A stretch of DNA of 48,584 bases from Candidatus Raymondbacteria bacterium RIFOXYA2_FULL_49_16 (lineage in GTDB: Bacteria > Fibrobacterota > OXYB2-FULL-49-7 > XYB2-FULL-49-35): the NCBI GenBank assembly GCA_001789205.1, contig MFYT01000031.1, positions 9,059 through 57,642 on the forward strand. The letters run 5' to 3'. A model generated the notes under the pieces. The model searched no databases. It was not told the origin of the DNA and saw only the letters and a program-made list of their open reading frames with translations. The translations under genes were made by a program, and so were the position numbers. Positions 39,816 to 44,159 of this stretch are shown piece by piece; position 1 is the stretch's first letter; each line of letters starts with the position of its first letter.

Positions 39816-39987
39816 AAGAGACCCTTCCAGACTTAAGTACGAAGACCCATTTTTTGTCTACTATCTTAATATAAACGTTGAAAACGTCCGGTGCAAATGA
39901 AAGTCGAAAAAATATCAATCAACGTGACATTCCAACGGTAGTACATGTATATTCTTGGGCCATTGCACACACGTTGCAGGAGATACC

Positions 39988-40632
39988 ATGAAACTTAAAC
40001 TGCTCGATCTGTTGCTGCCCCGGGAGACAAAGTTCTTCACGTACATGCACGATCAGGTTGATATCCTTATTGAGGGATGCCATGTATTCAAAGACCTTGT
40101 GGCCATCCTTGGTACTAAAAACGAGAATGAGATAAAGACGAAGCTCGCAAAGATCAAGGACTGCGAAATCCGGGGTGACGCTGTTGAAAAAGGGATTATT
40201 GATGAGCTCCATAAAACATTTATTACTCCCATAGACCGGGAGGACATCCACTCCATGGCCGTAAATATCGACCGGTCCCTCGATATTCTTAACAGTATCT
40301 CCCAGAAATTTGAGATATACCATATCGACAGCGTGCCTTTTAATGTGGGCGAATTCGGTAATCTCCTTCTCGAAATAGCCCTTGAATTAAGGAACCTCAT
40401 CGACGCGCTCAAGGAAAAAAGCAACGTCCAAGCTGTTGTCGAAAAGATCCACGGGCTCGAAAACAGGGGCGACTACCTTTTTCACCTGAGCATGGCCGAA
40501 CTCTTTTCCGGCTCACATCCGCCAATCGACATCATTAAGTTCAAGGAGGTCTACGAACATCTTGAAGAAGTGGTCGATTCAGTCGATTTTGTCGCGAAGA
40601 TGGTTCGTGGAATCATGGTGAAACTGGGTTGA
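39988..40632 (+). CDS. PhoU-like protein (DUF47) of a PiT transporter pair
   Basis: 214 residues, all helical. LLLPRETKFFTYMHDQVDIL, IKDCEIRGDAVEKGIIDELH, TFITPIDREDIHSMAVNID and EVVDSVDFVAKMVRG match the DUF47/YkaA family. These proteins regulate or assist the neighbouring PiT transporter. CAGGAG lies six bases before the ATG. The stop overlaps the transporter's TTG start (TTGA), so the pair is coupled. The two genes diverge from the ABC operon, with the promoter in 39816-39987. Confidence 0.92.
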   Translation: MKLKLLDLLLPRETKFFTYMHDQVDILIEGCHVFKDLVAILGTKNENEIKTKLAKIKDCEIRGDAVEKGIIDELHKTFITPIDREDIHSMAVNIDRSLDILNSISQKFEIYHIDSVPFNVGEFGNLLLEIALELRNLIDALKEKSNVQAVVEKIHGLENRGDYLFHLSMAELFSGSHPPIDIIKFKEVYEHLEEVVDSVDFVAKMVRGIMVKLG

Positions 40633-41681
40633 TCAAGGCGTCACTCTCAATGCTGAATACTCTATTGCATTTATATCAGACCCATACACTTCTGGTATTC
40701 ATTGTTTTTCTCGCCCTGCTCTTTGATTTTCTCAATGGCTTCCACGATGCGGCAAACGCCATTGCCACGGTGGTTGTCACCAAGACCCTTACCCCCTTGC
40801 AGGCGGTGCTGGTTGCGGGATTGGGAAATTTTATTGGATATTTCGCTTTTGGCGTGGCTGTGGCAAAGACCATTGGCAAGGGAGTTGTGGATATCTCGTC
40901 CGTGGTAAGTCCCGAGGCAAAACTCTTGATATTGCTTGCCGCAGTGGCGGGCGCCATTCTCTGGAACATTGCCACCTGGCTCCTGGGCCTTCCCACCTCG
41001 AGCAGTCATGCGCTCATCGGCGGGCTTATTGGCGCGGGCATTGCCGGCGTGGGCACCCAGGTAGTGCTGCTTGGCGGTGTGCTGAAAATCGTAGCATTCA
41101 TTATTATCGCCCCGGTCCTGGGCCTTGGGTTCGCGTTCATTTTTACCATCATTACCATCAGGTTTTGTTGGGGCTTTCACCCAAAAAGCACGACAAAAGC
41201 CTTCAAATGGCTGCAACTGGCATCAACGGTTTTTTTTAGCGTGGGGCACGGTACAAACGACGCGCAGAAAACCATGGGTATCATTGCCCTGGCACTCTTT
41301 GCCGGCGGCGTCACCAATTCTTTTGAACTCAAGGAATGGGTCGTTGTTTCCTGTTATATCGCCATTTCGCTGGGGACCATGATGGGTGGCTGGCGTATCG
41401 TTAAAACAATGGGCACGCGCATTACCCGGATCCAACCCATGGAGGGTTTCTGTTCGAGTACCGCGGCCGCCATTGTACTCCTCGTCACTTCACATGTAGG
41501 CATTCCTGTAAGCACGACTCATGTTATCGCAGGGTCAATCATGGGCGTGGGTACAGCGGAGGGGGCGGCGAATGTACGCTGGGTAACCGCGCGGAAAATA
41601 GTGTGGGCCTGGTTTCTCACCATCCCGCTCACAGCCTTGTGCGCGGCCCTGGTGTTCAAGACAATCGGCTTTTTTCAATAG
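40629..41681 (+). CDS. pit: Low-affinity inorganic phosphate transporter, PiT family
   Basis: 350 residues with about ten membrane helices. The two signature repeats of PHO-4 proteins are present: GFHDAANAIATVVVTKTL near the N-terminus and GTNDAQKTMGIIALALF in the middle. SSSHALIGGLIGAG and STTHVIAGSIMGVG are the paired re-entrant motifs. It imports phosphate with protons or sodium. TTG at 40629 gives coupling to the PhoU-like gene; an ATG at 40650 is the alternative. A short GC hairpin (41681-41694) follows the stop and may be a weak terminator. Confidence 0.93.
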   Translation: MIKASLSMLNTLLHLYQTHTLLVFIVFLALLFDFLNGFHDAANAIATVVVTKTLTPLQAVLVAGLGNFIGYFAFGVAVAKTIGKGVVDISSVVSPEAKLLILLAAVAGAILWNIATWLLGLPTSSSHALIGGLIGAGIAGVGTQVVLLGGVLKIVAFIIIAPVLGLGFAFIFTIITIRFCWGFHPKSTTKAFKWLQLASTVFFSVGHGTNDAQKTMGIIALALFAGGVTNSFELKEWVVVSCYIAISLGTMMGGWRIVKTMGTRITRIQPMEGFCSSTAAAIVLLVTSHVGIPVSTTHVIAGSIMGVGTAEGAANVRWVTARKIVWAWFLTIPLTALCAALVFKTIGFFQ

Positions 41682-41701: not shown

Positions 41702-43036
41702 TTATTTTTTCTGAACAGCCTTCTGTATGCTCTGATACCCGCGGTGCGCCATCAGATTGTCCAGGATAATCATGGCCGTATAGTTTTCAGCGACCGGCCA
41801 TATGCGCGCCACGATAGTGGGGTCGCGCCGGGTAATGGCGGACAATGCTTTGTTTTCAAGCGTGTATTTGTCAATGGTATGCTGCGGTTTTGCAATGGTC
41901 GGGGTTGGCTTTACCGCTAGCCGGATAATGAGGTCCTGGCCTGTGGAGAGGCCGCCTGTAATGCCGCCAGCGCTGTTTGAGTCGAAGACAACTTTGCCCT
42001 TTTCCATGTGCATTTGGTCGTTGCTCTGTATGCCGGTCATGTCCTTAACAGCAAAGCCTGAACCGATCTCAACGCCTTTGACCGCGCCAATACCGAGCAT
42101 TTGGCCCAGTTCAGCGTCGAGTTTGTCGAACACTGGTTCGCCCACACCCGCGGGCAGGCCAGTGACGCACACTTCAACAATGCCACCGCTCGAATCGCCT
42201 GTGGCTGTTATTTTGTTGATGGCCTTGATCATGTCCCGGGCAGCATCAAGGTCGGGACAGTTCAGAATATGGTTGACCCCGTACTTTGATTCGATTTCTT
42301 TTTCGCTGCTTTTTGGCGCCTTTTCCCGAATAGCGTCGATTTCCTGTTCAATCTGGGTAAATATGGCTGTTTTTTCCAGGAAGTGCATGTCAGCGTTGAT
42401 CCGGCCTTTGACGTATACCTCCTGGTAGAAGGGGTCAAAATCGCAGCGCATTTTTTTAAACGCTTCTGTTTTTCTTCTGGCAACGGTTGAATCAACCGCT
42501 CCCATGCGCACGCCAGCGGCTTCTTTCACGTACGAGAATATTTCCACCCCCAGCGCTTTTAGGACTTTTTTTGCCAGATAGCCCGCGGCGACAATGGGCG
42601 CTGTATATCTGCCTGAAAAGATGCCCGCGCCAATGGAATCGTCGAAGGTGCCGTATTTGGCGAATGAGGCGTAAGAGGCGTGGCCGGGTCTGGGGGTACG
42701 ATTGGTGTCCTGGTACTGTTTGATATGGATGAAGTGCCTGTCGAGGTTGGGTATTAGAACAGTGAGCGGGGTACCGTTGGTGTGGTTTTTATCACCAGCG
42801 TTTTCGATAGTATCAGCCGCGTTTACGCCGGTATATATAATAGGGAGATCGGGCTCCTTGCGCGGCGATGAGAGTTCGTCAGCGCCCGGTTTACGCAAAA
42901 GCAGGTCGCCGTAGATCTCCTGTTCATTTATCAGCATGCCTGCGGGCAGCCCCTGTACCGTTGCCGAAAGCCCTTCCTGATACGATCCACCCGATATTGT
43001 TGCCTGAAACATTCTTCCGAAATGACATCCGATCAT
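41702..43036 (-). CDS. Divergent chorismate synthase homologue
   Basis: 444 residues against about 360 for AroC. It keeps the fold landmarks: LLLRKPG with PRKEPD (the RRPG...REPD region), RPGHASY (His119), SGGIVEVCVTGLPAGVGEPV and FDKLDAELGQ, SNSAGGITGGLSTGQ. Key residues differ: GESHG is replaced by GGSYQEG, so Tyr19 takes the place of the catalytic His; RGGGRSSARET becomes SIGAGIFSGRYT; RHDP becomes RRDP. About 80 extra residues lie in the middle (about 175-260). It may carry out a different reaction, or be a distant synthase. AAGGAG precedes the ATG. Confidence 0.8.
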   Translation of the reverse strand: MIGCHFGRMFQATISGGSYQEGLSATVQGLPAGMLINEQEIYGDLLLRKPGADELSSPRKEPDLPIIYTGVNAADTIENAGDKNHTNGTPLTVLIPNLDRHFIHIKQYQDTNRTPRPGHASYASFAKYGTFDDSIGAGIFSGRYTAPIVAAGYLAKKVLKALGVEIFSYVKEAAGVRMGAVDSTVARRKTEAFKKMRCDFDPFYQEVYVKGRINADMHFLEKTAIFTQIEQEIDAIREKAPKSSEKEIESKYGVNHILNCPDLDAARDMIKAINKITATGDSSGGIVEVCVTGLPAGVGEPVFDKLDAELGQMLGIGAVKGVEIGSGFAVKDMTGIQSNDQMHMEKGKVVFDSNSAGGITGGLSTGQDLIIRLAVKPTPTIAKPQHTIDKYTLENKALSAITRRDPTIVARIWPVAENYTAMIILDNLMAHRGYQSIQKAVQKK

Positions 43037-43157: not shown

Positions 43158-44159
43158 TTAATTCTTTCCAGGTGTTAAGTCTTTATATGGGTCGGCCCTG
43201 ATAAAAGCGTCGAACATAATCTGCTTTTTCTCGATTGGCACACCAATTGCCGCGCCATCGCCATAATCTGATAAAATAAAACCACCTTGGGGAGCGGCCC
43301 AGTGTTTCAGCAGGAGTGAAGCCTCCTGTACAATCTCACTATTGTTCTTAAACGGGAGTGTGTGCTGGATGTCGCATAGGGACGAGAAGCAGATTTTTCC
43401 CCTGAAACGTGCGCCGACTTCCTCTATTCCCAATGCGCGCGGTTGCTGCAGATTTATTACGTTGAGTCCGATATCTATGAGATCACCGATGATATCGTTC
43501 ACGAAGCCGCATGAGTGCATCCACACATGCCACCCCGCTTTCTTTACAGCACCAAAGATTTTTTTATACCGGGGTTTAAAAAATTCCCGCCACAGTGCGG
43601 GATCTATCATGAGCGCGTTTTCAGTTCCCCAATCATCGGTAAATTCAAATCCGTGTATTTTTCCGGGAAAACGGCGTGAAATATTTTCAATAATCAGGAT
43701 ATCAAAATCAACTATCCTGTCAGCAAGCATGGCTGCTTTTTCCGGCTCAATTATGAGGTCCATGAGTACGTTTTCAAATCCTCGCAGGCCTTGCATTCGT
43801 TCAAACAGGAGCATAAAGATACCGGTTTGTACATATTTGCCTTGGGAACCGGCGAATTCCCGTTCCATGCCTTCATAAAACCTGGGATTATCCGGGTCTG
43901 GCCATTGGTATGAATCCAGTTTTGACCAATCGTCCAAAGGATGGCCTTTTATCTGGCCCATGTTCGCTTCAGCCGTACGCATCCAGGTACATCCCCAGTA
44001 GTCTTTGAATTCCGTTTTGTCTTTCGGGCAAGCGCCTGACTGGTTCCAGTCGGCCCTGTGGACGTCATTTCGCCCCAGTCCGTCGAATATAAGGGGCAGA
44101 CGGTCCGGACCTTTGAATTCCACCGCGTTTTTCACCACTTCGTACGATGTCTGTGTCAT
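43158..44159 (-). CDS. Uroporphyrinogen decarboxylase-family protein (MtaA/CmuA-like)
   Basis: 333 residues of the URO-D fold. FKGPDRLPLIFDG starts the barrel. GFEFTDDWGTENALMIDPAL and WREFFKPRYKKIF are typical, and WHVWMHSCGFVNDIIGDLID carries the His-x-Cys of corrinoid methyltransferase relatives. LCDIQHTLPF and SDYGDGAAIGVP follow. Members decarboxylate uroporphyrinogen or transfer methyl groups to and from corrinoids; the HSCG motif and the lack of the heme-type N-terminus suggest the second group. A very strong ribosome-binding site (GAGGAGG) lies before the ATG. It is divergent from the AraC regulator, which may control it. Confidence 0.85.
   Translation of the reverse strand: MTQTSYEVVKNAVEFKGPDRLPLIFDGLGRNDVHRADWNQSGACPKDKTEFKDYWGCTWMRTAEANMGQIKGHPLDDWSKLDSYQWPDPDNPRFYEGMEREFAGSQGKYVQTGIFMLLFERMQGLRGFENVLMDLIIEPEKAAMLADRIVDFDILIIENISRRFPGKIHGFEFTDDWGTENALMIDPALWREFFKPRYKKIFGAVKKAGWHVWMHSCGFVNDIIGDLIDIGLNVINLQQPRALGIEEVGARFRGKICFSSLCDIQHTLPFKNNSEIVQEASLLLKHWAAPQGGFILSDYGDGAAIGVPIEKKQIMFDAFIRADPYKDLTPGKN

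What the first reader, a model, noticed from the sequence alone, without database searches (positions are those of the whole stretch)
41702..43036. Chorismate synthase homologue without the catalytic histidine and with an extra insert
GESHG is replaced by GGSYQEG (Tyr for the catalytic His), the RGGGRSSARET loop is changed to SIGAGIFSGRYT, and RHDP is RRDP, yet the scaffold motifs are kept. The protein is about 80 residues longer. It may be a chorismate-synthase fold with a different chemistry, or a very divergent true enzyme.
Basis: partly seen in the sequence, partly recalled or inferred. Interest (0 to 1): 0.65.

Follow-up and report, generated by a model that had tools for sequence, protein, structure and literature searches.

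The report
Chorismate synthase without its invariant histidine
A bacterium makes the precursor of its aromatic amino acids with an unusual form of chorismate synthase in which a histidine described as universal is a tyrosine, and the same form is conserved in at least 80 other genomes of several phyla, where it is usually the only copy, so it is very probably a real working enzyme and a natural test of what that histidine does.

Summary
It matches chorismate synthase over its full length (PF01264, 1.2e-93; TIGR00033 above cut-off) and its predicted fold matches only chorismate synthases. It is the sole AroC of a genome rated 100% complete that also encodes AroA, AroB, TrpE and prephenate dehydratase. 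It belongs to one tight, very divergent clade (best 80 relatives 70-77% identical) in Planctomycetota, Fibrobacterota, Spirochaetota-labelled and other MAGs. In 31 of 34 carrier genomes tested it is the only full-length AroC. In 20 genomes picked mainly because aroA lies beside it, that aroA is the genome's only one. All 99 clade members keep the two flavin-activating residues (His110, Asp339, S. pneumoniae numbering) and the five arginines reported to hold EPSP. All have Tyr for His10, lose several other invariant charged residues, and carry about 62 extra residues as a helical insert. Best reading: a genuine chorismate synthase with a remodelled phosphate-leaving-group side, not an enzyme for another reaction. 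This contradicts the published statement that this His occurs in all known species. Activity is untested.

The parts
41702..43036 (-). divergent aroC, 444 aa, the only chorismate synthase gene found in the genome
42977..42991 (-). GGSYQ, residues 16-20, in place of GESHG; Tyr19 stands for the invariant His10 (S. pneumoniae) / His11 (M. tuberculosis) / His17 (N. crassa), proposed proton donor to the leaving phosphate
   Evidence: Y 99/99 in the clade, H 68/68 in canonical rows
42893..42895 (-). Arg48, equivalent of EPSP-binding Arg39 (S. pneumoniae) / R46 (P. brasiliensis), kept
   Evidence: R 99/99
42680..42682 (-). His119, equivalent of His110 (S. pneumoniae), proton donor to FMN N1, kept
   Evidence: H 99/99; role from PMC3509576
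42602..42637 (-). SIGAGIFSGRYT, residues 134-145, changed loop; EPSP-binding Arg143 kept; Arg130, Glu135 (and Arg139 just after it) of S. pneumoniae lost
42263..42508 (-). insert, residues 177-258 (81 aa against 19), predicted as a helical subdomain; no Pfam match of its own
42776..42826 (-). second small insert, residues 71-87 (16 aa against 6)
41819..41830 (-). RRDP, residues 403-406: Arg403 (EPSP phosphate, R337 of S. pneumoniae) and Asp405 (Asp339, primes FMN N5) kept; His replaced by Arg404
41804..41806 (-). Arg411, equivalent of EPSP-binding R362 of P. brasiliensis, kept
   Evidence: role from PMC11633415

Best explanation
The gene encodes a working chorismate synthase: reduced FMN plus 5-enolpyruvylshikimate-3-phosphate (EPSP), anti-1,4-elimination of phosphate, giving chorismate. 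It belongs to a distinct, probably horizontally spread clade of AroC. Shown here by sequence: EPSP-binding arginines Arg48, Arg116, Arg143, Arg403 and Arg411 are kept, as are His119 (protonates FMN N1) and Asp405 (lets FMN N5 act as base), so substrate binding and flavin activation should be as in known enzymes. Inferred: the step that differs is the departure of the 3-phosphate, where the invariant His is Tyr19. There Tyr19, or the arginines on the phosphate (Arg403, or the new Arg404), would help the phosphate leave, or no acid is needed. The extra 62 residues form a helical subdomain whose role is unknown; it may act in assembly or in supply of reduced flavin.
For: Family: Pfam PF01264 full length 1.2e-93; TIGR00033 aroC equivalog 306.9 bits against a cut-off of 212.2. 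Fold: AF2 model (pLDDT 80.7, pTM 0.87) matches 28 chains at E <= 0.001, all chorismate synthases; 1QXO TM 0.75 by target length. Necessity: single AroC in a genome rated 100% complete that has AroA 1.2e-122, AroB 2.0e-108, two chorismate-binding enzymes including a 513-aa TrpE-like one and prephenate dehydratase. 31 of 34 carrier genomes have no other full-length AroC. Context: aroA within 6.5 kb in about 40 of 91 loci, 28 of them directly upstream on the same strand. In 20 of 20 genomes searched (nearly all taken from those adjacent loci), the only AroA over cut-off lies beside this aroC. Residues: the five EPSP arginines, Lys311, His110 and Asp339 equivalents kept in 99/99; arginine roles from PMC11633415, His110 and Asp roles from PMC3509576. 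Constraint: 70-77% identity for the best 80 relatives across several phyla.
Against: The His that is replaced is proposed as proton donor to the leaving phosphate and was described as present in all known species (PMC2386126; PMC7144000). Other charged residues invariant in the canonical rows are also gone: E8, R38, D112, R130, E135, R139. NF003793, another chorismate synthase model, scores just under its cut-off (315 against 321). At least eight carrier genomes also hold a canonical AroC, so there it is not needed as the only enzyme. No activity data exist, and most carriers are MAGs.
Confidence: 0.9

Rival explanations
1. A chorismate-synthase fold recruited to a different reaction or substrate.
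For: Loss of seven residues invariant in the canonical rows examined, and coexistence with a canonical AroC in seven Fibrobacterota genomes and G183.
Against: It is the only AroC in most carriers, including the complete own genome with the rest of the pathway. It lies beside the sole aroA in 20 of 20 genomes chosen largely for that adjacency. All five EPSP arginines and the flavin-activating His and Asp are kept.
Confidence: 0.05
2. A decaying or inactive AroC paralogue.
For: Loss of a residue called invariant (PMC2386126).
Against: 70-77% identity over full length among the best relatives, many invariant columns and no stops; sole copy in most carriers.
Confidence: 0.01
3. A bifunctional chorismate synthase whose helical insert lets it reduce FMN with NAD(P)H. 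This is an addition to the best explanation, not a replacement for it.
For: A conserved 81-residue insert region; bifunctional enzymes exist in fungi and M. tuberculosis (PMC2386126).
Against: Bifunctional enzymes of known structure align without this insert, and PMC2386126 says bifunctionality cannot be predicted from sequence. The insert has no Pfam match.
Confidence: 0.1

Closest known systems
Canonical chorismate synthase AroC (EC 4.2.3.5; PF01264, TIGR00033; structures 1QXO, 1R52, 2O12, 4LJ2)
   Same: Fold, full-length alignment, EPSP arginines, His110 and Asp339 equivalents, pathway setting with aroA
   Different: His10 is Tyr; E8, R38, D112, R130, E135 and R139 lost; RHDP is RRDP; insert of about 62 residues at 177-258 and 10 at 71-87; about 30-34% identity in most full-length comparisons; separate clade on a long stem (2.79 changes per site)
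Bifunctional chorismate synthase of fungi and M. tuberculosis
   Same: Same family, and also longer than the E. coli type in some members
   Different: The known bifunctional enzymes keep the His and align without this insert; flavin reductase activity is untested here

Membership tests
Chorismate synthase (PF01264 / TIGR00033) | Full-length match above curated cut-off | tested here: met
   PF01264 313.9 bits (cut-off 27); TIGR00033 306.9 (cut-off 212.2); NF003793 narrowly missed, 315 of 321
Chorismate synthase (PF01264 / TIGR00033) | Beta-alpha-beta chorismate synthase fold | tested here: met
   only chorismate synthases at E <= 0.001
Chorismate synthase, canonical form | Invariant His near the EPSP phosphate (His10/11/17) in GESHG | tested here: not met
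   Tyr in 99/99 of the clade; so it is filed as a variant, not as a canonical AroC
Chorismate synthase (PF01264 / TIGR00033) | Invariant His near FMN N1 (His110) and Asp that primes N5 (Asp339) | tested here: met
   window His119 and Asp405, 99/99
Chorismate synthase (PF01264 / TIGR00033) | EPSP-binding arginines (PbCS R46, R103, R129, R354, R362) | tested here: met
   window R48, R116, R143, R403, R411, 99/99; mapping by motif from PMC11633415
   Signature 2 found in the window; signatures 1 and 3 in 0 of 99 clade members
Chorismate synthase (PF01264 / TIGR00033) | Converts EPSP to chorismate with reduced FMN | not testable with these tools
   Supported only indirectly by genome content and operon
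Bifunctional chorismate synthase | NAD(P)H-dependent FMN reductase activity | not testable with these tools
   PMC2386126 says sequence and structure do not predict it

The most novel reading that the evidence does not exclude
A naturally spread chorismate synthase that makes chorismate without the 'invariant' phosphate-protonating histidine, using Tyr19 or arginines (or no acid), with three acidic and three basic invariant residues removed and a new helical subdomain; that is, the same reaction by an altered catalytic arrangement.
Probability: 0.6. Interest if true: 0.55.

Novelty: new variant of a known kind. Interest (0 to 1): 0.47.

Why it matters
Chorismate synthase is a drug target with an unusual mechanism (reduced flavin, no net redox change), and the role of its phosphate-side histidine rests on mutants and a claim of universal conservation. 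A clade of natural enzymes without it, apparently the sole enzyme in many genomes of several phyla, makes the question directly testable and gives a second solution to the same chemistry. It also warns that signature patterns built on GESHG, such as signature 1 tested here, miss a real enzyme and could wrongly predict aromatic auxotrophy.

Tried and rejected
Pseudogene or sequencing error: rejected, conserved in 99 aligned relatives. A hidden canonical aroC in the same genome: searched, none found. A special AroA partner making a different substrate: rejected; the own AroA and that of the same-order genome G001, whose AroC is canonical, share the same SKSHTIRA type, and carriers have one ordinary AroA. 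Insert as a known domain: no Pfam match. RHDP to RRDP as a catalytic loss: rejected, 1QXO has Ser there. Contamination as the cause of genomes with both forms: not settled; GC and tetranucleotide profiles agree well for G020 (r 0.964) and less for G024 (0.836) against cross-genome controls of 0.80-0.90. Tree rooting: the S. pneumoniae row and the divergent clade are both long branches that meet, so the sister group of the clade is unresolved. Paper searches found no description of this clade.

Full report
The ORF at 41702-43036 on the minus strand (444 aa) is intact. It matches Pfam chorismate synthase over the whole profile (1.2e-93) and the TIGR00033 equivalog above its cut-off, and just misses a second NCBIfam model, NF003793. 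The closest solved structures by sequence are all chorismate synthases. An AlphaFold2 model from 81 clade sequences (pLDDT 80.7, pTM 0.87) matches only chorismate synthases at E <= 0.001, with 1QXO (the FMN and EPSP complex) at TM 0.75 by target length. Parts of the model around the active-site loops have low confidence (segments 51-59, 101-117, 358-363, 400-403), so it supports the fold, not fine geometry.

The scan of genome contigs gave 154 relatives; the best 80 are 70-77% identical over full length. Most are Planctomycetota (Phycisphaerae, Sedimentisphaerales); others are labelled Fibrobacterota, Spirochaetales, Lentisphaerae/Victivallales, Omnitrophota and Auribacterota, mostly MAGs. A tree puts a 34-member sample of them in one group (support 100) on a stem of 2.79 changes per site with short, taxon-mixed branches inside. 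This points to late spread by horizontal transfer of an already very different enzyme (inference). Its sister group is unresolved because of long branches.

Against 68 canonical rows including S. pneumoniae 1QXO (sequence confirmed), the clade of 99 has lost these invariant residues (S. pneumoniae numbering): E8 to G, H10 to Y, R38 to L, D112 to S, R130 to I, E135 to Y, R139 to I. It keeps in 99/99: R39, R107, H110, R134, K311, R337, D339 and the Arg of 'PRA' (window R48, R116, H119, R143, K376, R403, D405, R411). A modelling paper on the P. brasiliensis enzyme gives R46, R103, R129, R354 and R362 as the arginines that hold EPSP, mimicking the S. pneumoniae crystal structure (PMC11633415). Mapped by motif, these are window R48, R116, R143, R403 and R411, all kept. 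The review PMC3509576 gives His110 the role of protonating FMN N1 and the Asp that of preparing N5 as base; Asp mutants lose 300-600 fold. So the flavin side and the substrate arginines are canonical and the phosphate-side acid is not. The missing His is described in PMC2386126 as protonating the leaving phosphate and present 'across all known species'. PMC12697075 says arginines cannot be excluded as the acid. The other lost charges are three acidic and three basic residues, which suggests linked loss of buried salt bridges (inference; not measured).

The extra length is mainly residues 177-258: 81 residues against a median of 19, predicted as several confident helices, without a Pfam match. 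The same spot is shortened in some Fibrobacterota AroC proteins, so it is a tolerant place in the fold.

Function by genome content: the window's genome is rated 100% complete and holds one AroC, this one. It also holds AroA, AroB, two chorismate-binding enzymes and prephenate dehydratase, so EPSP is made and chorismate is used (inferred from gene content; AroE, AroD and AroK were not searched). In the phylum, about 18 of 168 genomes carry the divergent form, seven together with a canonical AroC. The only other genome of the same order held has a canonical AroC alone. Of 34 other carriers searched, 31 have no other full-length AroC; a few of those 34 are genomes of the same phylum seen again under another handle. 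Among 91 loci about 40 have aroA within 6.5 kb, 28 of them directly upstream on the same strand. In 20 genomes searched, nearly all chosen from these adjacent loci, the one AroA over cut-off lies beside the divergent aroC; the weak second hits (62-91 bits) are far below cut-off and are read as MurA. The adjacency in those 20 reflects the choice; that no second aroA exists does not. In the window itself aroC lies beside unrelated genes: a URO-D-like protein, a PHO4 transporter with its DUF47 partner, and an AraC-type regulator.

Conclusion: a true chorismate synthase of a new variant type, at 0.9 confidence. How the phosphate leaves without the His, and what the helical insert does, are open. 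Genomes with both forms leave a small chance of a second role there; contamination was only partly excluded.

Noticed in passing
L115 with L132; L116 with L133; L118 with L134; G037, G038, G039, G024, G183: Genomes that hold both a canonical and a divergent aroC; the canonical partners examined fall in two separate canonical lineages.
   Followed up: partly
L174-L177, L179 (G046, G048, G055, G057): A Fibrobacterota genus whose AroC (ORFs of 315-356 aa) matches the Pfam profile in two halves and lacks about 25 positions (146-171), at about the same place where the divergent clade has its insert.
   Followed up: partly
L178 (G002:C647:11455-12713): An aroC with one in-frame TGA and two overlapping matches: a pseudogene, an assembly error or a recoded stop.
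   Followed up: no
L122 and L123 (G041): Two divergent AroC copies in one genome, 73% and 64% identical to the window protein.
   Followed up: no
window 39955-41681: A PhoU_div (DUF47) and PHO4 phosphate transporter pair next to aroC on the other strand.
   Followed up: partly
window 43158-44159: Protein weakly like uroporphyrinogen decarboxylase (URO-D, 4.5e-10), upstream of aroC on the same strand and next to an AraC-type regulator; not a regular neighbour of this aroC elsewhere.
   Followed up: partly
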